Source: Pseudactinotalea terrae (GTDB lineage: Bacteria; Actinomycetota; Actinomycetes; Actinomycetales; Beutenbergiaceae). From it: DNA of 64,000 nt. Shown one piece after another: positions 19,904-61,134 of this stretch. Position numbers and translations under genes: made by a program. A model generated the notes under the pieces. The model did not search any database. It was not told where the DNA came from and worked only from the letters and a program-made list of their open reading frames with translations. The stretch's first letter is position 1, and each line of letters opens with the position of its first letter. The DNA lies in assembly GCF_009733845.1 (NCBI RefSeq), contig NZ_WNXZ01000001.1, positions 992,001 to 1,056,000 of the forward strand, read 5' to 3'.

Positions 19904-19917
19904 TAGATGTGCGGCAC
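19904..19917 (-). promoter_or_regulatory. Class A box (GTGCCGCACATCTA) before excisionase gene
   Basis: Full match to the element-wide motif; the CATCTA hexamer is followed by 6 nt and then the ATG at 19897. Confidence 0.7.
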
Positions 19918-19974
19918 CTGCTGCTCCTGGAGCACAACGGGTCGCAACAGGCCCGGACGGGTGCTGTGGCGCTC

Positions 19975-20637
19975 CTACCAGATGGGCGTGTCGCGCTCCC
20001 ACGAGGGGGCCGTAGCCGACGCGGCGGGCGCGGTTGCTGCCGTCGGCGCTGCCATGGGTCGGACTACCGGCTCGACGGCCGCGGCCGCAGCACGAGCTGC
20101 CGGAGCGGCGATGCCGGGCTCGCCGTAGCGTTGCCCGGCCTTGACCGGGGTGCCCGGTGGGAAGTAGCGGCGACGGCGCCGCTCGAGCGCGCGGGTCTGC
20201 CGGCCGGTGAGCAGCTTGGCGCCCTTGGAGGTGTTGTGGTGGGCGCAGGAGGCTGCACCGTTCTGCAGCGAGGTCGCCCCGCCCTTGGACCACGGCAGGA
20301 TGTGGTCGGCGTGCTCGGCCTTGGCCCGGCACCGTTGCCACGCCCACCCGGTGTACTCGCACTGCCCGCCGGCGCGAGCGAAGACCTGCGCCCGCATCAC
20401 CGAGGGGTACATACGCACCGGGTCGGTCTGCCCGTTGCCGCGGCCGCCGGCCCGCCGGGCCGCGACACCGCCGACGAGCAGCGCCACCACCGCCAGCGGC
20501 ACCCACAGCGGGACCGCGAGCACCCGGGCCGCGATGACGGCCCGCAGCTCATCCAGGCCCTCGATGCCACCGATCGCGAAGTAGACGATCGCTCCCACGA
20601 CCGCCAGCGCGATCGTCGCGCGCAACGCCTTGCTCAT
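19975..20637 (-). CDS. Membrane-anchored HNH endonuclease
   Basis: 220 aa. Two hydrophobic segments near residues 5-25 and 42-62 are followed by an HNH domain: CEYTGWAWQRCRAKAEHADHI, then LPWSKGG and SCAHHNTSKG. The C-terminus is Ala/Pro-rich and probably disordered. The Cys/His pattern suits a zinc-stabilised HNH nuclease; why it is membrane-tethered is unknown. The ATG at 20637 has AGGAG 8 nt upstream, and a class B box lies 28 bp further upstream. Confidence 0.75.
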   Translation of the reverse strand: MSKALRATIALAVVGAIVYFAIGGIEGLDELRAVIAARVLAVPLWVPLAVVALLVGGVAARRAGGRGNGQTDPVRMYPSVMRAQVFARAGGQCEYTGWAWQRCRAKAEHADHILPWSKGGATSLQNGAASCAHHNTSKGAKLLTGRQTRALERRRRRYFPPGTPVKAGQRYGEPGIAAPAARAAAAAVEPVVRPMAAPTAATAPAASATAPSWERDTPIW

Positions 20638-20664
20638 GGACCAGCTCCTTCCGGGTGCACCGAT

Positions 20665-20679
20665 CAACATGCGCCGGGA
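20665..20679 (-). promoter_or_regulatory. Class B box (CCCGGCGCATGTTG) before HNH gene
   Basis: Matches the second recurrent upstream motif of the element, 28 bp before the start at 20637. Confidence 0.6.
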
Positions 20680-20686
20680 ACGACGA

Positions 20687-20714
20687 AGGGCCCCCACCCG
20701 AAGGTGAGGGCCCT
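20687..20714 (-). terminator. Hairpin terminator after ssb
   Basis: AGGGCCC stem extended by CACC/GGTG around a CGAA tetraloop, 17 bp after the ssb stop. Confidence 0.65.
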
Positions 20715-20730
20715 GTGCGTCAGCGAGGAC

Positions 20731-21204
20731 TCAGAACTCGTCGCCGTCCTCGGCCGGGGCCGACTGCTTCGGCGCCGACTTGGCCGCGGGGCGCGACTCG
20801 CTGCCGCCGTTGCCGCCGCCACCGTTGCCGTTGCCGCCCTTGGCCGAGCGGGTGACCTTCGCCGTCGCGTAGCGCAGCGACGGGCCGATCTCGTCGACCT
20901 GGAGCTCGACGACCGTGCGCTTCTCGCCCTCGGTCGTCTCGTAGGAGCGCTGCACGAGGCGGCCCTGCGCGATGACGCGGGTGCCCTTGGTCAGCGTCTC
21001 GGCCACGTTCTCCGCAGCCTCACGCCAGATCGAGGAGCGCAGGAACAGCGTGTCGCCGTCCACCCACTCGTTCTTGTCGCGGTCGAAGGTCCGCGGGGTC
21101 GAAGCGATCGTGAAGTTCGCGACCGCCGCACCCGAGGGGGTGAAGCGAAGCTCCGGGTCGCCGGTGATGTTCCCGACGACCGTGATGACGGTCTCACCTG
21201 CCAT
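20731..21204 (-). CDS. ssb: Single-stranded DNA-binding protein
   Basis: 157 aa. N-terminal OB fold ([21 protein letters not shown] through [11 protein letters not shown]), then a Gly/Asn/Ser-rich linker and the acidic tip EDGDEF, which in SSB recruits partner proteins. Element-borne copy, presumably protecting transferred or replicating single strands together with the element's DnaE. The ATG at 21204 follows AGGAGAATCAC. The class A box lies 91 bp upstream. Confidence 0.92.
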
Positions 21205-21294
21205 GTGATTCTCCTGCTTGTCTCGTCCCGCTCGCTGCGGGCCCTGGCTGTGGGTCGTGCGTCGACCCTCCGACGGACAGATGCCCGTACTTGT

Positions 21295-21308
21295 TATATG
21301 TGCGGCAC
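21295..21308 (-). promoter_or_regulatory. Class A box (GTGCCGCACATATA) before ssb
   Basis: Full match including the GTGC-C-GCAC core palindrome, 91 bp before the ssb start. Confidence 0.65.
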
Positions 21309-22726: not shown

Positions 22727-22740
22727 CGTATGTGCGGCTC
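22727..22740 (-). promoter_or_regulatory. Class A box variant (GAGCCGCACATACG) before 22674 operon
   Basis: Keeps the CCGCACATA core; the first four bases depart from GTGC. Located between the dnaE stop and the next operon. Confidence 0.6.
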
Positions 22741-26902: not shown

Positions 26903-26916
26903 GGTATGTGCGGCAC
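26903..26916 (-). promoter_or_regulatory. Class A box (GTGCCGCACATACC) before dnaE
   Basis: Strong match, 30 bp upstream of the dnaE start. Confidence 0.65.
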
Positions 26917-27812: not shown

Positions 27813-27826
27813 TAGATGTGCGGCTG
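27813..27826 (-). promoter_or_regulatory. Class A box (CAGCCGCACATCTA) before nuclease-like gene
   Basis: CCGCACATCTA core intact. It faces left while a class B box at 27843 faces right, forming a divergent promoter pair. Confidence 0.62.
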
Positions 27827-31090: not shown

Positions 31091-31105
31091 TACATGTGCG
31101 GGCAC
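31091..31105 (-). promoter_or_regulatory. Class A box variant (GTGCCCGCACATGTA) before redoxin gene
   Basis: One extra C in the centre of the core; 52 bp before the start at 31038. Confidence 0.58.
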
Positions 31106-33246: not shown

Positions 33247-33260
33247 GCGTATGTGCGGCA
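33247..33260 (-). promoter_or_regulatory. Class A box (CTGCCGCACATACG) before exonuclease gene
   Basis: Core TGCCGCACATA intact, 50 bp before the start at 33196. Confidence 0.62.
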
Positions 33261-34439: not shown

Positions 34440-34454
34440 TAGATGTGCGGGCAC
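34440..34454 (-). promoter_or_regulatory. Class A box (GTGCCCGCACATCTA) before 34433 gene
   Basis: CATCTA followed by 6 nt and the ATG; the same spacing as at 19904, 43886 and 58348. Confidence 0.7.
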
Positions 34455-34528: not shown

Positions 34529-34542
34529 TAGATGTGCGGCGC
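34529..34542 (-). promoter_or_regulatory. Class A box (GCGCCGCACATCTA) without an adjacent start codon
   Basis: It lies between the HNH stop (34560) and a strong hairpin (34475-34519), so no protein can be made from it before the hairpin. Confidence 0.55.
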
Positions 34543-35083: not shown

Positions 35084-35097
35084 GAAGATGTGCGGGG
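35084..35097 (-). promoter_or_regulatory. Class A box variant (CCCCGCACATCTTC) before HNH gene
   Basis: CCGCACATCT core kept; it directly joins the 29-bp inverted repeat at 35097-35125. Confidence 0.52.
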
Positions 35098-35125: not shown

Positions 35126-35138
35126 GGGTCGGCCCTGG

Positions 35139-35212
35139 TCGGGATGGCGGGACTCGAACCCGCGGCCCCTCGGCCCCCAGCCGAGTGCGCTACCAAGCTG
35201 CGCCACATCCCG
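35139..35212 (-). tRNA. tRNA-Pro(GGG)
   Basis: Cloverleaf with 7-bp acceptor (CGGGATG), anticodon loop CTGGGGG, T-arm GCGGGTTCGAGTCCCGC, encoded CCA. Confidence 0.93.
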
Positions 35213-35245
35213 TTGGCGGCCCGCCGCACGTGACGGCGGGCCTGG

Positions 35246-35319
35246 TCGGACTGGCGGGAGTTGAACCCGCGACCTCTCGCTCCCGAAGCGAGCGCGCTAC
35301 CAAGCTGCGCCACAGTCCG
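35246..35319 (-). tRNA. tRNA-Pro(CGG)
   Basis: Acceptor CGGACTG, anticodon loop TTCGGGA, encoded CCA; sequence similar to tRNA-Pro(GGG). Confidence 0.93.
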
Positions 35320-35338
35320 CTGTGCCTCTCGGCACGAG

Positions 35339-35412
35339 CTCGGGGTGCAGGGATCGAACCTGCGTAGGCGAGATTCAGAGTCTCGTTGGCGAGCCAGCAC
35401 ACCAACCCCCGA
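35339..35412 (-). tRNA. tRNA-Gln(CTG), divergent copy
   Basis: Anticodon loop CTCTGAA; U1-A72 pair and G73 agree with Gln identity. The seventh acceptor pair is mismatched. One of two Gln(CTG) genes in the array. Confidence 0.78.
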
Positions 35413-35501
35413 TCGCTCGCGGTTTGCTCGACGACCATGTCGTCACCGGCTCGGTGGCCGGAGGGTCAGCCCTTGCGGGCTCCGCGAATCCCTATGCTCT
35501 G

Positions 35502-36728
35502 TCAGCCCTTCACGCACACGATGGTGCGCAGCCGGGCGACGACCTCGACCAGGTCGACCTGGGCCTCGATGATCGACTCGAGGTCCTTGTACGCGCCGGG
35601 GATCTCATCCAGCACGCCGCCGTCCTTGCGGCACTCCACGCCCGCGGTCTGCGCCGCCAGGTCCTCCAGGCTGAATCGCCGCTTGGCCTCACCGCGCGAC
35701 ATCCGCCGGCCGGCGCCGTGTGACGCTGACCAGTACGACTCCGGGTTGCCCCGGCCCCGCACGATGAAGGACCCGGTGCCCATCGACCCCGGGATCAGCC
35801 CCAGGTCGCCGCGGCCGGCGCGGATGGCGCCCTTGCGGGTCACGATCAGCTCCTGGCCCTCGATCTGCTCGGTCGCCACATAGTTGTGGTGAACGTTGGC
35901 GACCTCCTCGAAGGTGATGTCCCGGTCCGGGAAGGTGGCTCGGACCGCGTCGACGAACAGCGTCATCATCACCGCGCGGGAGCGGGCCGCGTACTCCTGC
36001 GCCCAGGTCAAGTCGCGCAGGTAGGCATCCATCTGCGGTGTCCCGGCCAGCAGCACCGCCAGGTCACGGTCGACGATGCCCTGGTTGTGCGGCAGGTCCT
36101 TGGCGATGGCGACGTGCACCTCGGCCAGCGACTTGCCGATGTTGCGTGAGCCGGAGTGCAGCTGCAGCCACACCTGGTCGTCCTGGTCCAGGCACACCTC
36201 GAGGAAGTGGTTGCCGCCGCCCAAGGTGCCGAGCTGGCGGCGCGCTCGACCCTCCAGGTCACGCACCTGTGGGGTGAGCCGGTCGAACGCGTCCCAGAAC
36301 CGGTCGGTGCCGCGCAGCACCTCCGCGGTATGGGCCCTGTCAGACAGGGGCCGCAGCCGACGCAGGTCGACCGGGTCGTCGTGGGAGTTGAACCCGACCG
36401 GGATGCGTGTCTCGACCGCGGTGCGCAGCCCGTGCAGGTCCTCGGGCAGGTCGGCGGCGCTCAGGGACGTCCGCACGCCGATCATGCCGCAGCCGATGTC
36501 GACGCCGACCGCGTTCGGGGAGACGGCGTCCCGCATGGCGATGACCGACCCGATGGTGGCGCCCTTGCCCAGGTGCACATCGGGCATGACACGTACCCCG
36601 TGCACCCACGGCAGTGCGGCGATGTTGCGCAGCTGGGCCAGGGCGGCCGGCTCGACGTCGTGCTCGTGCGCCCACATCAGGGTGCTCGCCTTCGCGCCGC
36701 TCAGCGGCACCGGGTAGTGCTCGTGCAT
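35502..36728 (-). CDS. rtcB: RNA-splicing ligase RtcB
   Basis: 408 aa GTP/Mn-dependent ligase joining 2',3'-cyclic-phosphate and 5'-OH RNA ends, as made by anticodon nucleases. Motifs: MPDVHLGKGATIGSV, VDIGCGMIGVRT with the metal-binding Cys, LGTLGGGNHFLEV, LQLHSGSRNIG, and the SASHGAGRRMSR region with the guanylylated His. The ATG at 36728 follows GGAGGC; the reading frame upstream runs through tRNA genes and is not used. Its place inside a tRNA array suggests repair of cut tRNAs. Confidence 0.95.
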   Translation of the reverse strand: MHEHYPVPLSGAKASTLMWAHEHDVEPAALAQLRNIAALPWVHGVRVMPDVHLGKGATIGSVIAMRDAVSPNAVGVDIGCGMIGVRTSLSAADLPEDLHGLRTAVETRIPVGFNSHDDPVDLRRLRPLSDRAHTAEVLRGTDRFWDAFDRLTPQVRDLEGRARRQLGTLGGGNHFLEVCLDQDDQVWLQLHSGSRNIGKSLAEVHVAIAKDLPHNQGIVDRDLAVLLAGTPQMDAYLRDLTWAQEYAARSRAVMMTLFVDAVRATFPDRDITFEEVANVHHNYVATEQIEGQELIVTRKGAIRAGRGDLGLIPGSMGTGSFIVRGRGNPESYWSASHGAGRRMSRGEAKRRFSLEDLAAQTAGVECRKDGGVLDEIPGAYKDLESIIEAQVDLVEVVARLRTIVCVKG

Positions 36729-36776
36729 GGTGGTGCCTCCTGGTGTCGGTGCGCGCGCGGGGTGCGCTCGCTCTTC

Positions 36777-36790
36777 ATGATGTGCGGCGC
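36777..36790 (-). promoter_or_regulatory. Class A box (GCGCCGCACATCAT) before rtcB
   Basis: 49 bp before the rtcB start, between rtcB and tRNA-Gly(TCC). Confidence 0.6.
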
Positions 36791-36803
36791 TGCGGCCGCG
36801 TGG

Positions 36804-36876
36804 AGCGGATGGCGGGAGTCGAACCCGCGCCCGTCCGGGTGGAAGCCGGATGCTCGGCCTGCTGAGCTTCATCCGC
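36804..36876 (-). tRNA. tRNA-Gly(TCC)
   Basis: Acceptor GCGGATG, anticodon loop CTTCCAC, encoded CCA. Confidence 0.92.
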
Positions 36877-36904
36877 GAGGCGGCACCGCTGCGGTGCCGC
36901 TCAG

Positions 36905-36976
36905 ACGTACTGGCGGGACTCGAACCCGCGTCTCCGGTTTTGCAGACCGGCGCCTCGACCACTCGGCCACAGCACG
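36905..36976 (-). tRNA. tRNA-Cys(GCA)
   Basis: Acceptor CGTGCTG, anticodon loop CTGCAAA, U73 as expected for Cys; no CCA. Confidence 0.92.
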
Positions 36977-37013
36977 CAGCGGTCCGGCCACAGGTCGCGG
37001 CCGGACCGGTGTG

Positions 37014-37340
37014 TCAGTCGACGCCGCAGCCCTCGCACAGGCAGAAGATCAGCGGGTCGGGCATGACGTCGGCGAGCACCGGCCCGGTGGTGCGGTACTC
37101 GCGTGCGGCCGCACGCAGGCGGTCGCGGACAGCGGCGCGCCGCTCGATGACGGCAGAACCGCGGCGGGTCCACGGCTGGGAGGACGCCCAGCGGGCGACC
37201 ACACCCGGGCAGCCGACCTGGTCGCAGCTGATGCTGCCGACACGGGGAACCCAGTGGCCGTAGCGGTGGGGAACGAGCGTGCCGGGGTCGGCGCGCTGCT
37301 GCTCGACGTGAGCCGGGACGTGTGCGTGAGTGCGGGACAT
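37014..37340 (-). CDS. Small Cys-containing protein inside the tRNA array
   Basis: 108 aa, unknown. Basic, with VGSISCDQVGCPGVVARWAS and a C-terminal LIFCLCEGCGVD that could bind a metal with the first Cys pair. A central Arg-rich helix (AVRDRLRAAAREY) might contact RNA. Position between tRNA-Cys and tRNA-His suggests a link to the array but proves nothing. The ATG at 37340 is preferred over upstream options. Confidence 0.65.
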   Translation of the reverse strand: MSRTHAHVPAHVEQQRADPGTLVPHRYGHWVPRVGSISCDQVGCPGVVARWASSQPWTRRGSAVIERRAAVRDRLRAAAREYRTTGPVLADVMPDPLIFCLCEGCGVD

Positions 37341-37452
37341 GATGGCCCGTCTCCTTCTGCACACCGGTGGCGGCGGGATGCCGCACGGGGTGTCGGTGCG
37401 CGTCTACCTCATGGCGACCGCCTCCTCTCGGGTCGTGCAGCGGGCAAGTGGG

Positions 37453-37527
37453 GTGTCCGACGGGATTTGAACCCGCGACCTCCTGGACCACAACCAGGCG
37501 CTCTTCACCAGACCGAGCTCCGGACAC
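37453..37527 (-). tRNA. tRNA-His(GTG)
   Basis: Anticodon loop TTGTGGT; encoded G-1 opposite C73, the His identity feature. Confidence 0.93.
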
Positions 37528-37529
37528 AG

Positions 37530-37602
37530 TGCACGCGGCAGGGATCGAACCTGCGGCCGCCCGCGTGTGAAACGGGTGCTCTACCGCTGAGCTACACGTG
37601 CG
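37530..37602 (-). tRNA. tRNA-Val(CAC)
   Basis: Acceptor GCACGTG, anticodon loop TTCACAC, 2 bp from tRNA-His. Confidence 0.92.
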
Positions 37603-37645
37603 TGGACGGCTGACGCGCCGCCGGGCGACCCGCGAACGGGCAACG

Positions 37646-37717
37646 CTCCCCACCCAGGACTCGAACCTGGACTACCCGGGCCAGAACCGGGCGGGCTGCC
37701 AACTACCCCAGCGAGGA
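37646..37717 (-). tRNA. tRNA-Gln(CTG)
   Basis: Acceptor TCCTCGC with U1-A72 and G73 (Gln type), anticodon loop TTCTGGC. Confidence 0.9.
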
Positions 37718-37894
37718 TCGATCGACCAGGACGTGCATCAGACGCCACCCCTCGGGGACGGCGGCCTGCACCTGCTCGAGCGCAAGCTCGTAGCTCTCCG
37801 CCGTCGCGGACACCTGGTCGGTGCGCCGGTCGGGAGCCGGGCCCGTGTCGTCGGGCGGGATGGTCTCGATCCGGGCGTTGATGGTCACGGGCAT
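37703..37894 (-). CDS. Small ORF in the tRNA array
   Basis: 63 aa (MPVTINARIETIPPDDTGPA to LMHVLVDRSSLG) with a plausible beta-alpha-beta pattern; unknown. The stop lies inside the tRNA-Gln gene (15-bp overlap) and there is no strong ribosome site, so it may not be expressed. Confidence 0.45.
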   Translation of the reverse strand: MPVTINARIETIPPDDTGPAPDRRTDQVSATAESYELALEQVQAAVPEGWRLMHVLVDRSSLG

Positions 37895-37904
37895 GCCGTG
37901 ATCG

Positions 37905-37977
37905 TAGAGGCGGAGGGACTCGAACCCCCGACCACCTGCGCGTCATGCAGGTGCGCTACCAGCTGCGCCACACCTCC
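37905..37977 (-). tRNA. tRNA-Val(GAC)
   Basis: Anticodon loop ATGACGC; acceptor GGAGGTG closed by a G1-U72 wobble. Confidence 0.9.
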
Positions 37978-38002
37978 TCGGCGACGCGTGCGCGTCGCGC
38001 CG

Positions 38003-38075
38003 AGCGGACGGCGGGGATCGAACCCGCGACCTGCCGGTTGGGAACCGGCCGCTCTGCCTGCTGAGCTACGTCCAC
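38003..38075 (-). tRNA. tRNA-Gly(CCC)
   Basis: Acceptor GTGGACG, anticodon loop TTCCCAA. Confidence 0.92.
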
Positions 38076-38125
38076 GCCGGGGCGCACCGGGTGCGTCCCG
38101 CGCCCGTGACGTGGGCGAGCCGTGG

Positions 38126-38198
38126 AGCGGATGACGGGGATCGAACCCGCGACCTTCTCGTTGGCAACGAGACGCTCTACCTGCTGAGCTACATCCAC
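38126..38198 (-). tRNA. tRNA-Gly(GCC)
   Basis: Acceptor GTGGATG, anticodon loop TTGCCAA, encoded CCA. Confidence 0.92.
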
Positions 38199-38334
38199 AG
38201 GTGCCTCAGGGTGATCCCTCGCGCTGAGACGCCGCGTCCCGCCTGTCCCGGTGGTCTGCCGGGGAAGTTCGGGACCACCATCGCCCTGGACCGCGGCACG
38301 AGGTCCGCAGCGGAAACGAGAGGGTGGAGGTGAG

Positions 38335-38419
38335 CGGAGAGTCAGGGATTCGAACCCTGGTGGCTGTGACACCGCGACGCGTTCCAGGCGTGCCCGATAG
38401 ACCTCTCTGGCAACTCTCC
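38335..38419 (-). tRNA. tRNA-Ser(GGA)
   Basis: Class II with long variable arm; anticodon loop CTGGAAC; acceptor GGAGAGT, G73. Confidence 0.92.
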
Positions 38420-38446
38420 ATCAGCCCGTCACGTGGGCCAGCCGTG

Positions 38447-38521
38447 CTCCCCGACCAGGGCTCGAACCTGGGACGGACAGTGGGTAACAACCACCCGCTC
38501 TGCCAACTGAGCTACCGGGGA
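38447..38521 (-). tRNA. tRNA-Asn(GTT)
   Basis: Acceptor TCCCCGG, anticodon loop TTGTTAC, G73 as in Asn. Confidence 0.92.
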
Positions 38522-38552
38522 AGGTGCGCGATCGCAGCTCGCGCGGGCTGTG

Positions 38553-38625
38553 AGCCTCCTGCCGGAGTCGAACCGGCGACGCGCCGCTTACAGGGCGGCC
38601 GCTCTGACCTCTGAGCTAAGGAGGC
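38553..38625 (-). tRNA. tRNA-Thr(TGT) with C33
   Basis: Perfect anticodon stem GCCGC/GCGGC encloses CCTGTAA, so position 33 is C rather than the nearly universal U. All other arms are normal. Confidence 0.8.
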
Positions 38626-38631
38626 GCTGCG

Positions 38632-38704
38632 TCCGGATGGCGGGGCTCGAACCCGCGACCTCCCGCTCCCAAAGCGGGCGCGCTTCCAGCTGCGCCACAT
38701 CCGG
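38632..38704 (-). tRNA. tRNA-Pro(TGG)
   Basis: Acceptor CCGGATG, anticodon loop TTTGGGA. Confidence 0.92.
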
Positions 38705-38729
38705 TCGGCGTGATTTTCCGGGTCCTGAG

Positions 38730-39080
38730 TGGAGGTGGCGGGAGTCGAACCCGCGTCTCAGACACGAACTGACAGAAGGGGATCCCTACGAGCGTTGCCT
38801 GGCCAGGTACCGCGACGTCGCGAGGGCCAGGGCCGACGTCGTGGGTGCCGCGCGGAAGTGTCCCGGACCTCCCCGAGCGTGACGCGGGAGGAACGGCGAG
38901 CCCTGCTGCGACGCCCACATGACCGAGGCAGGGCCTCCCGGTCGGGGCGCTCGTCACGCGACGAGAGCGAAGTCGGACTTGGCGACTATTCCGTGCGGCG
39001 CATGATTTACGAGGTGACGTCGCGTGCCTCGGCTCGACTCGTTCTGCCATCGGCTGCCTGATCGAAACCATGACACCCCC
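38730..39080 (-). ncRNA. ssrA: tmRNA with a tag ending FALVA
   Basis: 351-nt transfer-messenger RNA. The tRNA-like ends pair (5' GGGGGTG with 3' CACCTCC), the 5' part has the conserved ATGGTTTCGA, and the 3' part has the T-arm GCGGGTTCGACTCCCGC. The tag frame can be read from 39001 (GCG resume codon) to the TGA at 38954, giving APHGIVAKSDFALVA, preceded by GTAAATCAT. Rescues stalled ribosomes by adding a degradation tag. A tmRNA inside a mobile tRNA array is unusual, and LVA replaces the common LAA end. Confidence 0.88.
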
Positions 39081-39112
39081 GATGGGTACTGCTCGAGCAC
39101 CGGAGTGCTCCG

Positions 39113-39185
39113 TGGACCTGGCGGGACTCGAACCCGCGACCCCCTCCATGCCATGGAGGTGCGCTACCAGCTGCGCTACAAGCCC
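39113..39185 (-). tRNA. tRNA-Ala(GGC)
   Basis: Acceptor GGGCTTG, anticodon loop ATGGCAT. Confidence 0.92.
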
Positions 39186-39252
39186 GCGCCTGGCTGACCA
39201 ACACACGGCTTCACCCCGTCGGGTGCCCGCACCGACCCGTCGGTCGTGCTGT

Positions 39253-39285
39253 GAGCCGCGCCCGGGCTCGAACCGGGACCAGCAG
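39253..39285 (-). pseudogene. 3' tRNA remnant
   Basis: T-arm-like CCCGGTTCGAGCCCGGG and acceptor-like tail without a 5' half, next to tRNA-Ala(TGC). Confidence 0.4.
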
Positions 39286-39358
39286 TGGAGTCACGGGGAC
39301 TCGAACCCCGAACCTTGTGCTTGCAAAGCACCTGCGCTACCAGTTGCGCCATGACCCC
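39286..39358 (-). tRNA. tRNA-Ala(TGC)
   Basis: Acceptor GGGGTCA, anticodon loop TTTGCAA. Confidence 0.92.
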
Positions 39359-39392
39359 GGATGCTGGTGTCGGTCCGGCCGCGCGCCGGCCA

Positions 39393-39464
39393 AGGAGAGC
39401 GGGACTCGAACCCGCCGTCGCCTGACCCCAAGGGGGCAGGTGCACACGCCCGTGTGCTGTCTCC
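39393..39464 (-). ncRNA. tRNA-like RNA without a normal anticodon arm
   Basis: Right length (72 nt), a perfect T-arm (GCGGGTTCGAGTCCCGC) and a 5-bp acceptor (GGAGA/TCTCC). The D-region is a 6-bp hairpin GCACAC/GTGTGC and the anticodon region is CCTGCCCCCTTGGGGTCAGG, a near-perfect hairpin with no 7-nt loop. Either a decayed tRNA or a specialised tRNA mimic. Confidence 0.5.
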
Positions 39465-39664
39465 CGTTCCGCTCGGAACCTCGGCCGGTCCCGACACCTG
39501 CTGATCGTCGGCGGGCTGCAGTCCCACCGGCTTCGAACCTCATGAGCGTCGCTGGTTCGCTTCGCTTCCGGCTTCATGTGGCCGGCTCGCCCGGCTACCG
39601 TTTCGGCCGGGTCTCTCGCTCATCTGCTTCATGTGCGGCACGAGCTCGTTTCGTGCACGCAGCG
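39465..39664. other. Spacer in the array with one class A box
   Basis: Between the tRNA-like RNA and tRNA-Ser(GCT). It holds the box at 39628 and a 30-codon frame starting at the ATG within that box (39632) and ending at 39540. I do not call the frame a gene. Confidence 0.4.
39628..39641 (-). promoter_or_regulatory. Class A box (GTGCCGCACATGAA) inside the tRNA array
   Basis: Full GTGCCGCACAT core; it could re-initiate transcription of the distal half of the array. Confidence 0.6.
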
Positions 39665-39750
39665 CGGAGGGTGCGGGATTCGAACCCGCGTGAGACTTAC
39701 GCCTCTGCCGCTTAGCAGGCGGCCGCCATCGTCCTCTCGGCCAACCCTCC
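39665..39750 (-). tRNA. tRNA-Ser(GCT)
   Basis: Class II; acceptor GGAGGGT, anticodon loop CTGCTAA, G73. Confidence 0.93.
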
Positions 39751-39898
39751 ATCGACACATGCCGCCAGCCCAGGTGACGTCCCCCGGGCTGACGGCGAGC
39801 CCGTGCACCGACGGAAGGGCGCCGCTACCGGTCCGTCCGGGCGGCGCTTTGCTCCTCATCGGTGTCATGGGCTGCTGGCGCGTGCCGTGCGCCAGACG

Positions 39899-41162: not shown

Positions 41163-41191
41163 GGCGTGCTCCTTCCTCTGGTTGGTTTGGG

Positions 41192-41265: not shown

Positions 41266-41478
41266 GTGGCCCGCGTTGCCGCAGCAGCACCGGCTGCGGC
41301 CCGCGCGGGCGCGGTGGGCACTCGAGACCGACGAGTGCATGGCTTTGCGGACCATGTCGACGCCCTGGGCGTCAGCCTTGCGGCGCCGCCGCACAGCGGG
41401 GTGCTCGCCGGTTGACCGGGCTGGCAGGGGCCACCGGTCGTGCTGTTCGGGCTGTGTGCGTCCCGTCCCTGCGTTGCG

Positions 41479-41549
41479 TACCCCGCAAGGGGATCGAACC
41501 CTTGCCGTCCGACTGAGAATCGGAGGTGCTGCCACTACACCAGCGGGGC
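41479..41549 (-). tRNA. tRNA-Glu(CTC)
   Basis: Acceptor GCCCCGC, anticodon loop TTCTCAG. The 213-bp spacer to tRNA-Glu(TTC) holds no gene I can support. Confidence 0.92.
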
Positions 41550-41590
41550 GTGCGGCCCGGCGAGCCGTGTCGGCTGGCGCCAGGTGTGCG

Positions 41591-41664
41591 TCGGCTCGGG
41601 AGGATTCGAACCTCCTACCTCGTCTGTATCAGAGACGCGCCCATACCGGATGGGCCTCAAGCCG
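41591..41664 (-). tRNA. tRNA-Ile(GAT)
   Basis: Acceptor CGGCTTG, anticodon loop CTGATAC. Confidence 0.92.
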
Positions 41665-41733
41665 GGGTGCTCGTACGCTCCCGTCCTGCTGCGCTACGAG
41701 CCACTGGGCGCCGCGGGTTGCGGCGCCGGTGCG

Positions 41734-41806
41734 CGATCCTGGCCGGTTTCGATCCGGCTACCTCCACCGTGACAGGGTGACGCTCTCCCGATTGAGCTAC
41801 AGGACC
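41734..41806 (-). tRNA. tRNA-Asp(GTC)
   Basis: Acceptor GGTCCTG, anticodon loop CTGTCAC, G73 as in Asp. Confidence 0.92.
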
Positions 41807-41838
41807 AAGTCGCGCCCGGGGTGACCCCGGGCACGTGG

Positions 41839-41910
41839 TTGCGGCGGCGGGACTCGAACCCGCGCACGCTGGCTTATGAGACCAGGGCTCTACCACTGAG
41901 CTACGCCGCT
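41839..41910 (-). tRNA. tRNA-Met(CAT), elongator-like with A1-A72 mismatch
   Basis: Anticodon loop CTCATAA, encoded CCA. The first acceptor pair is A1-A72, unpaired as in initiators, but the anticodon stem CTGGT/GCCAG lacks the three G-C pairs of an initiator. Could also be an Ile tRNA read after lysidine modification. Confidence 0.8.
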
Positions 41911-42013
41911 AGGACGGCCCGGTCAGGGGCACGGACTGCGATCCGCCGCGAGCACGTGTCGCAGCATGCGCCCGCGTCAGCACCTCCGCGGTACTGGACC
42001 TGACCCGACCTGG

Positions 42014-42086
42014 TGCCCCGCGCTGGATTCGAACCAGCGGCACGCCGCGTAGGAGGCGGCTGCTCTGTCCTCTGAGCTAGCAGGGC
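42014..42086 (-). tRNA. tRNA-Arg(CCT)
   Basis: Acceptor GCCCTGC, anticodon loop CTCCTAC, encoded CCA. Confidence 0.92.
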
Positions 42087-42102
42087 GATGCTGTTCGGCT
42101 GC

Positions 42103-42194
42103 GGCCCGCCCCGAGGACTCGAACCTCGCGTCGGCACACCGTCCTGGGTGCGCAGCCTCCGCCGAACCTGTCACCGGCGAGTCCCTGTGCGGGC
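42103..42194 (-). ncRNA. tRNA-like RNA with abnormal D and anticodon arms
   Basis: Acceptor GCCCGC/GCGGGC and T-arm CGAGGTTCGAGTCCTCG are intact over about 91 nt, but the interior folds as two other hairpins (CGCCG/CGGCG and GCGCACC/GGTGTGC) without a 7-nt anticodon loop. Confidence 0.45.
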
Positions 42195-42199
42195 GTTCC

Positions 42200-42294
42200 A
42201 TCGTCGCGGGAGTCGAACCTGCGCGGCGAGCCGTGCTCACCTCACCTCATCCGAGGCCGGCCTGCGAGAGGTGCTCGCCCACCGGGTGCACGAT
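42200..42294 (-). pseudogene. Degenerate tRNA-like remnant
   Basis: Imperfect T-arm (GCAGGTTCGACTCCCGC) and ATCGT/ACGAT ends about 95 nt apart; no anticodon arm recognised. Confidence 0.35.
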
Positions 42295-42324
42295 CGCGAG
42301 CCTTGCTTCCCGCTTCGTGCGTGG

Positions 42325-42397
42325 TGCCTCGCCTGGGATTCGAACCCAGAGCCCATCGAGTAAGAGTCGATTGCACAGCCAGTCGTGCTCGCGAGGC
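42325..42397 (-). tRNA. tRNA-Lys(CTT)
   Basis: Acceptor GCCTCGC, anticodon loop CTCTTAC, encoded CCA. Confidence 0.92.
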
Positions 42398-42401
42398 GTG
42401 G

Positions 42402-42484
42402 TGGGAGCGGCAGGATTCGAACCTGCGGAGTCCGGAGACGGCTGATTTACAGTCAGCTGCGATTGGCCGCTACGCGACACTCCC
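42402..42484 (-). tRNA. tRNA-Tyr(GTA)
   Basis: Class II variable arm; acceptor GGGAGTG, anticodon loop CTGTAAA, encoded CCA. Confidence 0.93.
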
Positions 42485-42801
42485 AAGAGGCACGGACCCG
42501 ACACCGGCCATGCCCTTGCGGGACGACCGGGGACGCTCGAACGCGGAGCCCCGGCGCGCGTGGCGCCGGCTCCGTGCCATGTGGGGCCACCGACCCTCCC
42601 AGGGTTGGCGCGTCCGGCAGTCGCACTCCCCCGCGTCGTGCGGGTTCCTCATGCGACGGGTCGCCGGACGCACCGCCTGCGAGGCGGTGGCCTACTTCTC
42701 ATCCACTGTGCTGTTCTCAAATGAGCACCCGGAGGTGCTCTGCATGTCCACCGAGGCCCACCCCGACTGGTATCGGGGTCGTCCACCAAGGGGAGCTACG
42801 C
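42485..42801. other. 317-bp spacer between tRNA-Tyr and tRNA-Trp
   Basis: No convincing gene. It contains the right copy of the 29-bp inverted repeat (42690-42718) and a GAGCACC-CGGA-GGTGCTC hairpin just after it. Confidence 0.5.
42690..42718. repeat. 29-bp inverted repeat, right copy
   Basis: Reverse complement of 35097-35125 with two mismatches. Confidence 0.75.
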
Positions 42802-42872
42802 ACGGGCGGAGGGGTTCGAACCCCCGTTTGACGGGTTGGAGCCGTCTGCACTAGGCCGCTGTACTACGCCCG
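42802..42872 (-). tRNA. tRNA-Trp(CCA), first gene of the array
   Basis: Anticodon loop CTCCAAC; acceptor CGGGCGT with a mismatch at pair 7. Nearest to the array promoter. Confidence 0.88.
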
Positions 42873-42911
42873 CTCGATGTTCTGTTGTCCTGCCGGTCCT
42901 GCTGGTAGTGC

Positions 42912-42925
42912 CTGATGTGCGGCAC
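42912..42925 (-). promoter_or_regulatory. Class A box (GTGCCGCACATCAG) before the tRNA array
   Basis: 40 bp upstream of tRNA-Trp and downstream of a terminator, so it is the likely array promoter. Confidence 0.68.
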
Positions 42926-43324: not shown

Positions 43325-43338
43325 TATATGTGCGGCAC
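43325..43338 (-). promoter_or_regulatory. Class A box (GTGCCGCACATATA) upstream of the 47-aa gene
   Basis: Exact copy of the ssb box; about 190 bp before the start codon. Confidence 0.63.
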
Positions 43339-43885: not shown

Positions 43886-43899
43886 TAGATGTGCGGGTC
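43886..43899 (-). promoter_or_regulatory. Class A box variant (GACCCGCACATCTA)
   Basis: CCGCACATCTA with 6 nt to the ATG at 43879. Confidence 0.66.
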
Positions 43900-48927: not shown

Positions 48928-48941
48928 TGAATGTGCGGCAC
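48928..48941 (-). promoter_or_regulatory. Class A box (GTGCCGCACATTCA) before lipoprotein 2
   Basis: Full GTGCCGCACAT core, 93 bp before the start at 48834. Confidence 0.63.
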
Positions 48942-49019: not shown

Positions 49020-49033
49020 TGCCGCACATCTGA
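49020..49033 (+). promoter_or_regulatory. Class A box (CTGCCGCACATCTGA) facing a terminator
   Basis: Plus-strand copy with no gene ahead; 18 bp later comes the 49052-49090 hairpin. Confidence 0.55.
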
Positions 49034-49777: not shown

Positions 49778-49791
49778 TAAATGTGCGGCAC
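49778..49791 (-). promoter_or_regulatory. Class A box (GTGCCGCACATTTA) before lipoprotein 3
   Basis: Full consensus, 51 bp before the start at 49727. Confidence 0.66.
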
Positions 49792-57263: not shown

Positions 57264-57277
57264 TACATGTGCGGGGC
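57264..57277 (-). promoter_or_regulatory. Class A box variant (GCCCCGCACATGTA)
   Basis: CCGCACATGTA core; tandem with the class B box at 57231. Confidence 0.53.
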
Positions 57278-57351: not shown

Positions 57352-58341
57352 TCAGCGGGTGGCCGCCCGCATGGCCTCCTTGTGGAGGTCCTCGGCGTAG
57401 GCGGAGTGGGCGACCAGGACCGCGACGATGTCGTCCTTGTCGTCGGGCGACAGGTCGGGCCCGAACGGGGCGAACAGCGCCGCGGTGGCGGGGGTGTCCT
57501 CGTTGCGGTTCCAGTCGCGCACGGCCTCGCGCACGCCGCCAGCCGAGGCCAGGGCGTCCTTGTGGGTCTTGGCGCTCTGGCGGGACAGGCTGTCGGCTGC
57601 GACGTCGGCGACGCCGGCGCTCTCGGCGATCGCGGTCCATGCGGAGCGGCGCGCCTCGGCCTTGCGGCCGTTGGTGGCGGCGATCAGGGCCTGCCCGAGG
57701 GCGGAGTCGGCGTCCACGGCGATGTCGTCGTCGCTGCTGCCCTGCTGCTCGGCGACGATGTCGCCCAGGGTCTGCTCACCGTCACCGATGGGCCGGTCCA
57801 GGGAGACGAACCGCATCTCGGCGAGCACGACGAAGTCCTTCGACGGCTTGTGCCGCTGGTCCTCCCAGGTGTCGCGGATCTCGGTGGCCAGGGCCTTGCG
57901 CTCCTGGCTGGAGGTCCTGCGGCCGAGCTCGTCCTCCAGCTCGGTGACGCGACGGTTGTAGATGCCCATGGCCTTGCGGTCCTCGGGGCGCAGCGTGCCG
58001 CGCAGCGCGATGGCGACGTGCCCGCTGGTGACCCGGTCGACGTAGGCGCGGGTGACCACGGTGCTGGCGTTGCGCTGGCGTGCCTGCAGCACGGTGGCCA
58101 TGGTGTCCTGGGCGATGTCCTCGGGCGAGACGTAACGCAGGCCGCGGACCCGGCTGTGGTGACGGGCCGACATGAGGGCGACCTTGACCAGGCCCTCGGC
58201 GTCGAGCTCCTCGACGGGGGGCTTGGCGGTGGCCTCGGGGCGCTCGAGGAGGCTGACCGAGGTCTCGGTGCGCTGCTCGACGGCGAACTGTCCGCCGTCG
58301 CGAACTCCTCGGGCGACGCGCTTGCGTGGGGTGATCGTCAT
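57352..58341 (-). CDS. Sigma-70-family-like protein with N-terminal GGQFA peptide
   Basis: 329 aa. After RGVRDGGQFAVEQRTETSVS comes a region resembling sigma region 2 (YVSPEDIAQDTMATVLQAR near residue 71, then AYVDRVTSGHVAIALRG), then region 3-like LEDELGRRTSSQERKALATE and VSLDRPIGDGEQTLGDIVAE near 180, and a possible region 4 helix-turn-helix (AGVADVAADSLSRQSAKTHK). It may direct RNA polymerase to the class A boxes. The ATG at 58341 is 6 nt after such a box, so it may control itself. Similarity is by eye, not search. Confidence 0.6.
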   Translation of the reverse strand: MTITPRKRVARGVRDGGQFAVEQRTETSVSLLERPEATAKPPVEELDAEGLVKVALMSARHHSRVRGLRYVSPEDIAQDTMATVLQARQRNASTVVTRAYVDRVTSGHVAIALRGTLRPEDRKAMGIYNRRVTELEDELGRRTSSQERKALATEIRDTWEDQRHKPSKDFVVLAEMRFVSLDRPIGDGEQTLGDIVAEQQGSSDDDIAVDADSALGQALIAATNGRKAEARRSAWTAIAESAGVADVAADSLSRQSAKTHKDALASAGGVREAVRDWNRNEDTPATAALFAPFGPDLSPDDKDDIVAVLVAHSAYAEDLHKEAMRAATR

Positions 58342-58347
58342 AGCCGG

Positions 58348-58361
58348 TAGATGTGCGGGCT
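58348..58361 (-). promoter_or_regulatory. Class A box variant (CAGCCCGCACATCTA) before the sigma-like gene
   Basis: CATCTA followed by 6 nt and the ATG at 58341. Confidence 0.66.
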
Positions 58362-59217: not shown

Positions 59218-59219
59218 CC

Positions 59220-59483
59220 ATGCGATCGATCCGGAACGCCGGCGAGCTCGGCGCCGCGCTGCGAGAACGTCGCCTACGGGCTGGCCTGACCCAGGCCCAG
59301 GTTGCCGAACGGGCCGAGGTCTCCCGCGCGTTCGTCACCGAGCTCGAACGGGGCCGCCGCCCCCGCGCAGAGCTGATGCGGGTCTTCATGGTCATGCGGG
59401 CCCTGGAAACCGGCCTCGAGCTGGTCGACGCCCCGACCAAGACGGCCGATCAGGCCCTCAGCGAGCTGCTCGGGTTCGCCTGA
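59220..59483 (+). CDS. HipB/XRE-type helix-turn-helix regulator
   Basis: 87 aa with an XRE helix-turn-helix: LGAALRERRLRAGLTQAQVA and ERAEVSRAFVTELERG. Small repressor or antitoxin-like; no toxin is adjacent (the next gene is convergent). The ATG at 59220 overlaps the end of an operator-like repeat, suggesting self-repression, and the message is probably leaderless. It is divergent from the 59007 gene, so it may switch both. Confidence 0.85.
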   Translation: MRSIRNAGELGAALRERRLRAGLTQAQVAERAEVSRAFVTELERGRRPRAELMRVFMVMRALETGLELVDAPTKTADQALSELLGFA

Positions 59484-59524
59484 GCGGCACCGCTGCCCCA
59501 CGGCCGGGGACGCTCTCGGGCACC

Positions 59525-59968
59525 TCAGTCCGTGGTCCGCTCCTCGATCAGTGGGGCGTTCGCGGCAGCGGCGAGGCTGTAGGCCACCGGCACCTGCAGC
59601 GGGTCGGGCACCACCTCCCACAGATCGAACCAACGTGCCTGGGCGTTCCCCTGCATGCCGGCGGCGGCGGCCGCGACCAGTCGCGCGCCGTGCTGCTCGC
59701 ACCAGGTGGCCTCCGGGTCGCTGCGAAACGTCAACACCCCGGTGCCCGGGTCGACGCTCCACTGGCATCGGTCGATACGCACCGGCGCGGCGGCGACGGC
59801 CCGCAACCCGGTCAGCACCGACAACGCCAGCGCGACATGACGCACCACACCGGCAGGCTGAACGGTCAGGTCGACCGGCAACCCGGCGGCGGCGTCCACG
59901 GCAAGCAGCCGCACCGCAGGGTCGCTCCCGTAGCGGGCGTTGTCCTCCTCCCGGGGATCTCGACTCAT
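59525..59968 (-). CDS. Protein of unknown function
   Basis: 147 aa, no recognised domain. Beta-rich centre (LTVQPAGVVRHVALALSVLT, DPGTGVLTFRSDPEATW). It overlaps the stop of the secreted nuclease gene (ATGA type), so it is the third gene of the 61067 operon. Confidence 0.72.
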   Translation of the reverse strand: MSRDPREEDNARYGSDPAVRLLAVDAAAGLPVDLTVQPAGVVRHVALALSVLTGLRAVAAAPVRIDRCQWSVDPGTGVLTFRSDPEATWCEQHGARLVAAAAAGMQGNAQARWFDLWEVVPDPLQVPVAYSLAAAANAPLIEERTTD

Positions 59969-60591
59969 GCGCATCCCTGCTGGACCTGCTCGGCGACCTC
60001 CCGGTCGGCCTGCGACAGCGTCAGCGCATAGGTCTGCGCGACCTGCACGTAGGTGGTCACGTACTCGCACAACGCCAGCCCGGACAGCTGCGGGGCGTAC
60101 TCGGCCAGGGTGGCGTCGGACTTGGAGGCGTTCACCGACCCGGCCGCGGCCAGCAGGTTCACCTCGTCGTTGGCGAAGGCGACCCGCTGCTCATAGGTCC
60201 AGGCGTACGCGCCGGCGTCCCAGGCCTGCGCCAACGGCAGCACATGGTCGATCTGCACCTGCTGGCTGGTCGTGGTGCCGCGCTCGAACCTCACCCGCTG
60301 CCCGGTGTAGGGGTCCACCAGGACCCCGGAGATCACGACGCAGTCCGAGCCCGGCGCGTGCTGCACCTGGGTCAGGTCCCGGGCCAGCACCCGGTTGCGG
60401 GTGTCGCAGCCGTTGCTGCTGGCCCAGCCGTCGCCGAACTCCTCCCGCACGTAGTCGGGCACCGCGTCGGGGCGTACCTGCGTGCGGGTGAGCTCGGGAG
60501 CCGGCTCGGTGAACGCTGAGCTTCCCTGGACGTAGCCGAGCCCGGCGAGCACCACGACCGCCAGCCCGGCCAGCAGCCGGCGCCGGGTCAC
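59965..60591 (-). CDS. Secreted HNH nuclease-like protein (GmrSD C-terminal/DUF1524 type)
   Basis: 208 aa. N-terminal signal/anchor (LLAGLAVVVLAGLGYVQG), then an HNH domain with CDTRNRVLARDLTQV, VQIDHVLPLAQAWDAGAYAW and LLAAAGSVNASKSDATLAEY, the pattern of exported HNH nucleases common in actinobacteria. It may degrade extracellular DNA or take part in DNA entry. GTG at 60591 overlaps the upstream stop. Confidence 0.83.
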   Translation of the reverse strand: MTRRRLLAGLAVVVLAGLGYVQGSSAFTEPAPELTRTQVRPDAVPDYVREEFGDGWASSNGCDTRNRVLARDLTQVQHAPGSDCVVISGVLVDPYTGQRVRFERGTTTSQQVQIDHVLPLAQAWDAGAYAWTYEQRVAFANDEVNLLAAAGSVNASKSDATLAEYAPQLSGLALCEYVTTYVQVAQTYALTLSQADREVAEQVQQGCA

Positions 60592-61067
60592 CCCTGCTCC
60601 CCCGGGTCGGTGTCCAGCACAGTGGCGGGCCTCGGGTCGGGCAGCAGTTTGGGCGCGGGGCGCGGTCCCCCGGCCGGGGCCTTGACCATGACACCGGTGC
60701 AGCCCAGGGTCAGCGGGCACTTGGACGGGACCGTGGTGCCGGAGGCGGCCGCCATCCAGGAGCCGCAGCCCCGGCAGGCGGCGATCGCGACGGCCTGCGC
60801 GTCTGGGCCCTCTCCGGTGAGCTTGACCCGCAGCACGTGCAGCACGTCGTCGTGCTCGGCCAGCAGCTCGACCTGCCACGGCTCGAGAAGCACGTTGCCC
60901 GGCAGGCCGGACAGGTCGCGGCCGAGCTCGGCCCAGGTGTGACGCTTGGCCCGCTTGATCAGGTACATGGCCAGGCTCGCCGCGGTCAGCAGACGGACAG
61001 TGGGGTCGGTGGCGACCTCCTCGGGGGTGAATCCGCCCTTGGGGTCGACGTAGAACGGTGCTGCCAT
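60588..61067 (-). CDS. Putative zinc-ribbon-containing protein
   Basis: 159 aa, unknown. N-terminal MAAPFYVDPKGGFTPEEVAT, a helical region, then a Cys cluster CRGCGSWMAAASGTTVPSKC with CPLTLGC that could bind zinc, and a disordered Pro-rich tail. The ATG at 61067 is 6 nt after CATAAG of the class A box: probable leaderless first gene of a three-gene operon. Confidence 0.72.
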   Translation of the reverse strand: MAAPFYVDPKGGFTPEEVATDPTVRLLTAASLAMYLIKRAKRHTWAELGRDLSGLPGNVLLEPWQVELLAEHDDVLHVLRVKLTGEGPDAQAVAIAACRGCGSWMAAASGTTVPSKCPLTLGCTGVMVKAPAGGPRPAPKLLPDPRPATVLDTDPGEQG

Positions 61068-61073
61068 GGCTGC

Positions 61074-61087
61074 CTTATGTGCGGCAC
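61074..61087 (-). promoter_or_regulatory. Class A box (GTGCCGCACATAAG), minus-strand half of a divergent pair
   Basis: Six nt before the ATG at 61067; it faces away from the copy at 61121. Confidence 0.7.
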
Positions 61088-61120
61088 CCGCCGCCGCCGC
61101 GACCCGACACCCGGACCGGG

Positions 61121-61134
61121 GTGCCGCACATAGG
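61121..61134 (+). promoter_or_regulatory. Class A box (GTGCCGCACATAGG), plus-strand half of a divergent pair
   Basis: Six nt before the GTG at 61141. With 61074 it proves that motif direction follows gene direction. Confidence 0.72.

What the first reader, a model, noticed from the sequence alone, without database searches (positions are those of the whole stretch)
19904..61134. Element-wide upstream motif GTGCCGCACATNTA before almost every operon
I found about 22 copies (19904, 21295, 22727, 26903, 27813, 31091, 33247, 34440, 34529, 35084, 36777, 39628, 42912, 43272, 43325, 43886, 48928, 49020, 49778, 57264, 58348, 61074, 61121), and none in the 18-kb chromosomal arm. Direction follows gene direction, shown by the divergent pair at 61074/61121. 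It precedes ssb, dnaE, redoxin, exonuclease, HNH, rtcB, the tRNA array, lipoproteins, sigma-like and other genes. This looks like one regulon-wide promoter or operator family private to the element.
Basis: seen in the sequence. Interest (0 to 1): 0.86.

Follow-up and report, generated by a model that had tools for sequence, protein, structure and literature searches.

The report
Mobile element's private promoter system
A 260-kilobase mobile DNA element appears to start about half of its operons from its own kind of promoter, probably read by an overlooked switch protein (a sigma factor) that the element carries, and relatives of this system occur on giant plasmids of other actinobacteria.

Summary
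The motif is real and larger than reported. The window holds the first 46 kb of a ~259-kb element in tRNA-Leu. The core octamer CCGCACAT occurs 136 times there (17-fold denser than elsewhere in the genome); all 61 genomic copies of CCGCACATNTA lie inside.

It looks like a promoter: 88 of 136 octamers have a start codon 16-18 nt downstream, so most of these genes would be leaderless, with the motif at -17 to -10. Host genes carry TANNNT there (32 of 176), element genes rarely (5 of 267). Eight actinobacterial megaplasmids, Cellulosimicrobium contigs and Actinomyces vulturis have the same or diverged versions; two plasmids add a sharp -35 box.

The likely reader is an unannotated, divergent sigma-70-like protein, window 57352-58341 (-), found on exactly the 8 plasmids that carry the element's VirB4-like ATPase at 45% identity or more. 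Sigma homology is plausible, not proven.

Unexpectedly, two promoter subclasses split genes by protein: in element and Cellulosimicrobium 86 of 86 class-A leaderless genes lack, and 80 of 89 class-B genes carry, a shared N-terminal 'PAGV..GGQFA' tag, as does the sigma-like protein. Transcript starts and binding are untested.

The parts
18063..18149 (+). tRNA-Leu(GAG), left attachment site; a similar 3' end stands at C7:1269522 (element ~259 kb)
   Evidence: right copy imperfect, no exact 18-mer shared
18276..19574 (+). tyrosine integrase (g108)
   Evidence: Pfam PF00589 E 4e-17
57352..58341 (-). g143: divergent sigma-70-like protein, 329 aa, candidate reader; N-terminal GGQF tag; class-B site 17 nt before its ATG
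19907..19914 (-). octamer, both TG and NTA; leaderless g109
21298..21305 (-). octamer, both TG and NTA; leadered g111
22730..22737 (-). octamer, neither; before g113
26906..26913 (-). octamer class A; before dnaE (g114)
27816..27823 (-). octamer class B; leadered, before g116
31094..31101 (-). octamer class B; leadered, before g120 (redoxin-like)
33251..33258 (-). octamer class A; before g122
34443..34450 (-). octamer class B; leaderless tagged g124
34532..34539 (-). octamer class B; second site upstream of g124
35088..35095 (-). octamer, neither; before g125
36780..36787 (-). octamer, neither; before g126
39631..39638 (-). octamer class A; inside the tRNA array
42915..42922 (-). octamer class A; head of the tRNA array
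43328..43335 (-). octamer, both TG and NTA; before g130
43889..43896 (-). octamer class B; leaderless g131 (untagged by the regex)
48931..48938 (-). octamer class A; before g136
49022..49029 (+). octamer class A; leaderless ORF at 49039 (+), not among my called genes
49781..49788 (-). octamer, both TG and NTA; before g137
57267..57274 (-). octamer class B; before g142
58351..58358 (-). octamer class B; leaderless site of g143
61077..61084 (-). octamer class A; leaderless g148, divergent pair
61124..61131 (+). octamer class A; leaderless g149, divergent pair
35136..42873 (-). region with 36 tRNA genes by ARAGORN (33 above Rfam's threshold) and one tmRNA, with class-A octamers at its head and inside

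Best explanation
The motif is the -10 region of a private sigma-70-type promoter. Transcription would start at the A of the start codon for most genes, giving leaderless mRNAs, with C C G at -17 to -15 and C A at -12/-11 as the most fixed positions. Two subclasses exist: A (TG-CCGCACAT; in the two Micrococcaceae plasmids tested, a site with a -35 box CGGTGAG) for ordinary genes, and B (CCGCACATCTAC; no -35 box) for proteins with a shared N-terminal tag. Shown by sequence statistics: motif, position, subclass split, private distribution, co-occurrence with g143. Inferred: transcript starts, that g143 is a sigma factor, that it reads the motif, that one factor serves both subclasses.
For: Start-codon offset peaks at 17/18 in the element (28 and 19 of 61; background 1.1 per offset), and at 17 in zg-Y1110 (58 of 121), pACHL01 (65 of 130) and pS16 (39 of 100). 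SD-like sequence before 6 of 88 leaderless but 26 of 38 leadered starts. TANNNT beginning at -14 to -12: 32 of 176 chromosomal against 5 of 267 element gene starts. Unbiased 9-mer counts put a word of this class first in element, zg-Y1110, pACHL01 and pS16. -35 box: G 98% and A 91% at fixed positions of 121 sites in zg-Y1110; 97% and 87% of 130 in pACHL01. Family pattern CCGNNCA-N10-ATGA: 46-79 hits (control 0-3) in 8 of 8 plasmids with g143 against 12 (control 4), 9 (1) and 3 (0) in 3 plasmids without it. g143 is found on 8 plasmids, exactly those with the VirB4-like ATPase at 45.4-48.5% identity. A FliA-type sigma, g180, was not found on 2 of these 8. Of 14 g143-family genes, 10 have CCGNNCA 16-17 nt before the ATG. 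Profile against PDB: 9 of 10 hits are sigma factors, region 2, though three are one SigE family. Motif types agree with the sigma tree: element and Cellulosimicrobium group together and share CCGCACATCTAC.
Against: Sigma homology is weak: for g143 itself Pfam Sigma70_r2 E 0.14 and r3 E 0.094, both below the cut-offs; r2 matched in 5 of 9 homologues, best 3e-4; PDB hits E 0.06-0.96; hhalign against FliA-type sigmas probability 3%, E 0.014; AlphaFold pLDDT 68, pTM 0.37, mostly helical; no fold search possible. Micrococcaceae plasmids also carry another, stronger-scoring sigma gene, an alternative reader there. Two subclasses may mean two readers. Of 14 family genes, pS16 and pCPAA3 have only a looser site (CCGCATACATA) and A. 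vulturis none; for the Nocardioides MAG only 26 nt upstream are held and its 11-kb locus shows no motif. Co-occurrence cannot separate g143 from other core genes of these plasmids; of the three negative plasmids one (ERGS1:01) lacks the VirB4 relative too.
Confidence: 0.68

Rival explanations
1. The motif is a promoter read by a host sigma factor together with an element-encoded activator that binds CCGCACA; g143 is such an activator or something unrelated.
For: The -10 sequence is unlike the host's own box; the classes differ in flanking elements, as activator-dependent promoters can. On pMP7017 a plasmid-private motif overlaps a normal -10 and was read as a transcription factor site (PMC10832533, passages).
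Against: Two Micrococcaceae plasmids have a complete bipartite promoter at fixed spacing. Little TANNNT remains at element starts. Among genes shared by the element and three near-complete plasmids I recognised no other DNA-binding regulator except an Lsr2-like one (named's annotation of its zg-Y1110 relative), but many of these genes are of unknown function.
Confidence: 0.17
2. Another element-borne sigma reads it: the FliA-type g180, an ECF-like sigma, or the primary-type sigma of the Micrococcaceae plasmids.
For: g180 is a clear sigma with regions 2, 3 and 4 and has relatives on 6 of the 8 plasmids.
Against: g180 was not found on pACHL01 and pYJN5-1, which have the family pattern, and its relatives sit in flagellar clusters in 4 of the 6 records opened around them. 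No primary-type match was seen in the element or on pS16. g162 had no match in the three plasmids compared (400 of 401, 400 of 427 and 440 of 546 kb).
Confidence: 0.08
3. The motif is an operator for an element-wide repressor, like the stoperators of cluster A mycobacteriophages (recalled).
For: Many dispersed, oriented, intergenic copies; GTGCCGCAC in class A is nearly palindromic.
Against: It replaces the -10 box at its position and comes with a -35 box in two plasmids; class B is not palindromic.
Confidence: 0.05
4. The motif is a DNA-level signal (segregation, replication or transfer), not a promoter.
For: Element-wide, many copies.
Against: For 88 of 136 copies the position is locked to a start codon to within 1-2 nt, in the orientation of the gene.
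Confidence: 0.02

Closest known systems
pMP7017 megaplasmid 34-bp motif, Bifidobacterium breve (PMC10832533; abstract, outline and passages seen)
   Same: Plasmid-private motif at 19 places predicted to drive 56 genes, reported absent from bifidobacterial chromosomes; the plasmid also carries a tRNA array and tmRNA, and a distant VirB4 relative (28% identity).
   Different: There it overlaps a canonical TATACT -10 with ribosome binding sites downstream and was read as a transcription factor site; no g143 relative was found on it and the family pattern gives 3 hits.
Leaderless sigma-A promoters of Actinobacteria, TANNNT (PMC3160421; passages seen)
   Same: Same position about 12 nt before the start codon, no ribosome binding site.
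   Different: Different sequence; TANNNT is rare at element starts and CCGCACATNTA absent from the rest of the genome.
Phage sigma factors that redirect host RNA polymerase (T4 gp55, SPO1 gp28; recalled)
   Different: Here on an integrated conjugative-type element and megaplasmids, at about half of putative operon heads (102 of 183), and linked to a protein tag.
Polyvalent proteins of conjugative elements and phages (PMC5512222; passages seen)
   Same: One tagged class-B protein has LPD29 (E 3e-11) and one a weak LPD39 match (E 0.007).
   Different: Most of the 43 tagged proteins show no such domain; delivery is untested.

Membership tests
Sigma-70 family (for g143) | Region 2 homology | tested here: inconclusive
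   Weak Pfam matches in 5 of 9 homologues; 9 of 10 PDB profile hits are sigma factors at this region, E 0.06-0.96
Sigma-70 family (for g143) | Regions 3 and 4 in order | tested here: inconclusive
   'LGR..S..E' and 'SLD.P.GE' stretches look like regions 3.0 and 3.2 to my eye (recalled); Sigma70_r3 E 0.094; helices at 214-266 in a low-confidence model; no region 4 match reported
Sigma-70 family (for g143) | Binds RNA polymerase core, initiates transcription | not testable with these tools
   needs biochemistry
Sigma-70-type promoter | -10 element at fixed distance before the start, with a -35 element | tested here: met
   Start-codon position in four replicons; -35 clear in zg-Y1110 and pACHL01; no -35 seen in the element; transcript starts themselves not measured
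Leaderless sigma-A promoter | TANNNT at about -12 | tested here: not met
   The element's motif reads CATNTA there; TANNNT at 5 of 267 element starts
Integrative conjugative element | Integrase, att repeats, conjugation genes | tested here: inconclusive
   Integrase, tRNA site, imperfect right copy, VirB4-like and TraB-like genes; relaxase not sought, transfer not testable
pMP7017 34-bp motif | Motif overlapping TATACT | tested here: not met
   sequence differs
Polyvalent proteins (tagged set) | Multidomain effectors delivered with DNA | tested here: inconclusive
   LPD29 in 1 of 43, LPD39 weak in 1; delivery not testable

The most novel reading that the evidence does not exclude
Class-B promoters and the N-terminal tag define one delivery package: tagged proteins, the sigma-like factor among them, pass with the element's DNA into the recipient, where the delivered sigma switches on the private promoters before the newcomer has made any protein of its own. 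The element would bring its own start signal for gene expression, as phage N4 brings its polymerase.
Probability: 0.18. Interest if true: 0.95.

Novelty: new variant of a known kind. Interest (0 to 1): 0.86.

Why it matters
If right, a family of giant actinobacterial plasmids and integrated elements runs much of its own transcription programme in parallel to the host's, with a promoter that differs between lineages in step with its likely reader. That makes sigma-promoter co-evolution testable in a natural series, gives a marker for finding such elements, and may offer an orthogonal expression system. The tight link between promoter subclass and an N-terminal protein tag, seen in four replicons, points to a coordinated set of proteins with perhaps a shared destination; I met no name for it in the nine literature searches I made.

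Tried and rejected
Phage origin: first suspected from the tRNA array and tmRNA; set aside because the proteins found are VirB4-like, TraB/FtsK-like, pilus and type I-E Cas, and no capsid or terminase turned up among those scanned. Of 267 called genes 50 were scanned one by one with Pfam (one of them, g276, cut short), 18 more within the tagged set and 4 more with NCBIfam only, so 72 in all. IMG/VR gave no g143 relative and no match to two promoter patterns (one search used a wrong spacer).

FliA-type sigma g180 as reader: dropped when pACHL01 proved to have the motif without it. Exact motif in other genomes: CCGCACATCTAC in 396 genomes of the order gave at most 3 matches in any genome but our own (43); the Cellulosimicrobium genome was reached later by protein. 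NCBIfam gave nothing for g143. Structure comparison was not possible.

Literature: 9 searches in open PMC papers only; titles and abstract starts listed there did not describe this promoter or g143, which cannot prove absence.
Full report
OBSERVATION. The core of the motif is the octamer CCGCACAT. It stands at 22 of the 23 coordinates given and nowhere in the 18-kb chromosomal arm. The whole genome (4.76 Mb, 15 contigs) has 61 exact CCGCACATNTA, all 61 between C7:1011904 and C7:1269210, and 274 octamers, 136 of them in the element. It runs from a tRNA-Leu (C7:1010063) with an integrase beside it to an imperfect copy of the tRNA 3' end at C7:1269522, about 259 kb.

WHAT THE ELEMENT IS. My gene calls (267 genes) include DNA polymerase III alpha, NAD-dependent DNA ligase, a VirB4-like ATPase, FtsK/TraB-like proteins, type IV pilus ATPases, a penicillin-binding protein, type I-E Cas proteins and sigma factors, beside 36 tRNAs and a tmRNA. 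72 of the 267 were scanned against a family library. By tblastn the VirB4-like protein is on 16 plasmid records, 8 of them Micrococcaceae or Curtobacterium plasmids of 375-607 kb at 45.4-48.5% identity. Many further genes are shared with these plasmids. It is best called a giant integrative element of a megaplasmid family; transfer itself is not shown.

IT IS A PROMOTER. Without using gene calls, I asked where ATG or GTG codons opening at least 50 codons fall after the motif. In the element 28 of 61 CCGCACATNTA sites have one at offset 17 and 19 of 61 at 18, against 1.1 expected per offset; in zg-Y1110 58 of 121, pACHL01 65 of 130 and pS16 39 of 100 at offset 17 for their own versions. Of 136 octamers 88 are leaderless by this test (ORF of at least 40 codons, offsets 16-18), and only 6 of the 88 have an SD-like sequence, against 26 of 38 leadered intergenic ones. 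With the A of ATG as +1 at offset 17 the octamer spans -17 to -10. The host gives the control: in the flanking chromosome 32 of 176 gene starts have TANNNT beginning at -14 to -12, the known leaderless sigma-A box (PMC3160421, passages seen); in the element 5 of 267. Caution: my caller favoured starts behind the motif, not starts behind TANNNT. The element has put another sequence where the host has its -10 box.

THE FAMILY. De novo 9-mer counting, with no motif supplied, gave a word of this class first in four replicons: CCGCACATCTAC (element), CCGCACACATAGG (Arthrobacter zg-Y1110), CCGCACACATG (pACHL01), CCGCGCATAGG (Curtobacterium pS16) (400 kb of each plasmid read). In zg-Y1110 (121 sites) and pACHL01 (130) an ungapped alignment shows a second block, CGGTGAG, 15-21 nt upstream of the octamer, with G at 98/97% and A at 91/87% of sites: a -35 box. 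The element shows none, pS16 only a weak C (70%) at -16. Cellulosimicrobium contigs have the same motif as ours (170 octamers in 320 kb read) and Actinomyces vulturis has NCGACCAT (27 sites in 58 kb). The words share CG at -16/-15, usually C at -17, and CA at -12/-11; sites were picked by these words, so the invariance within each set is by construction. The pattern CCGNNCA-N10-ATGA gives 78, 67, 60, 73, 46, 70, 55 and 79 hits in the eight plasmids that carry g143 (controls 0-3), and 12 (control 4), 9 (control 1) and 3 (control 0) in three that do not; the whole Cellulosimicrobium genome gives 103 (control 9) and the whole A. vulturis genome 32 (control 12).

g143 (window 57352-58341, minus) has relatives annotated as hypothetical in the 7 of 8 plasmid records that have annotation. 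tblastn finds it on 8 plasmids (E up to 0.01), the same 8 as above, and the search for related loci adds five further genomes besides C. pusillum. Weak but consistent signals point to a sigma factor: Pfam Sigma70_r2 in zg-Y1110 (23.5 bits, 24.1 with neighbours, cut-off 24) and pACHL01 (E 0.001, below it), in 5 of 9 homologues; 9 of 10 PDB profile hits are sigma factors over the same stretch, E 0.06-0.96. Against: g143 itself scores E 0.14, hhalign with FliA-type sigmas gives probability 3%, and the AlphaFold model, made from 6 sequences, is mostly helical but of low confidence (pLDDT 68, pTM 0.37); no fold search was available. Of 14 family genes, 10 have CCGNNCA 16-17 nt before the ATG, among them the element's own; pS16 and pCPAA3 have CCGCATACATA at 17, A. 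vulturis has none, and the Nocardioides contig holds only 26 nt upstream. Other sigma genes fit worse: g180 was not found on pACHL01 and pYJN5-1, and strong primary-type matches were seen only on Micrococcaceae plasmids.

TWO SUBCLASSES AND A TAG. TG just before the octamer and NTA just after it tend to exclude each other: 55 TG only, 52 TA only, 9 both, 20 neither in the element (p 4e-12), and likewise in Cellulosimicrobium (82, 59, 10, 19; p 1e-18). The split follows the protein made. Among leaderless genes of the two pure classes, class A has 31 of 31 untagged and class B 38 of 43 tagged in the element; 55 of 55 and 42 of 46 in Cellulosimicrobium. In zg-Y1110 (28 tagged of 106) and pACHL01 (29 of 111) the untagged genes mostly have the -35 box and the tagged ones mostly do not (A at -16: 82% against 4%, and 90% against 10%). 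The tag is R.PAG(V/I)..GGQFA......E..V.L in the first ~45 residues; 43 of 267 element proteins have it by regex against 1 of 177 chromosomal ones; 38 of the 43 sit right behind an octamer, as do 44 of the 224 untagged. Across the 43, M1, R8, G12, G16, G17 and E26 are invariant in the alignment (the glycines were part of the regex). g143 carries it. pS16 and A. vulturis gave no tagged leaderless proteins by this regex (50 and 14 examined). Fisher p-values treat genes as independent, though promoter and N terminus may have been duplicated together; that would be another cause of the link.

MECHANISM. Most likely g143 directs host RNA polymerase to these promoters, including its own, so that the element's expression depends on its own factor. 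A few genes keep host-like boxes, among them the HTH regulator at window 59220. Why there are two subclasses is open: timing, a second factor, or a package of proteins with one destination. One tagged protein has an LPD29 domain and one a weak LPD39 match, domains of the polyvalent proteins thought to travel with DNA (PMC5512222, passages seen); this is the basis of the bold reading and is thin.

NOVELTY. pMP7017 is the closest precedent I found: a plasmid-private 34-bp motif at 19 places, but over a canonical -10 (PMC10832533, abstract and passages seen). Nine literature searches of open papers did not show this system in their listings.

Noticed in passing
43 genes of the element, e.g. window 33597-34433 (-), 57355-58341 (-): Shared N-terminal tag R.PAG[VI]..GGQFA......E..V.L on otherwise different proteins, among them one with poly(A) polymerase/CCA-adding and HD domains and the sigma-like protein.
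   Followed up: partly
L061, L085, L138-L140, L144, L146 upstream of the g143 homologues: A separate conserved box, TGCGCGTTT (TGCGCATTT in L140) with GAA or AAA after it, lies before the sigma-like gene in these seven Micrococcaceae loci, near where the -35 box would be.
   Followed up: no
pACHL01 (L068-L087): A second enriched word, around TCTACGCATG (23-29 copies of its 9-mers in 400 kb), unexplained.
   Followed up: no
C7:1143044-1143460 and L008:11795-12322 (-): Two further small sigma-like genes in the element; the second, g162, looks ECF-like.
   Followed up: no
C7:1247276-1255306 (L017): Type I-E cas genes inside the element (for two of them); repeated words such as ACGGAGAAA in the element might be CRISPR repeats, not checked.
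   Followed up: no
window 59175-59219 (+): HTH regulator g145 has a host-type TANNNT box within repeated GTCACG/ATGACACC-like words, possibly its operator.
   Followed up: no
W01:378959, W02:355549, W04:186273, L139:40346: Micrococcaceae megaplasmids carry a strong-scoring, probably primary-type sigma gene, in two cases within a frame or annotated gene of about 1000 codons.
   Followed up: no
L042, L043, L045, L046: Large flagellar gene clusters with a FliA-type sigma on four of the plasmid records opened.
   Followed up: no
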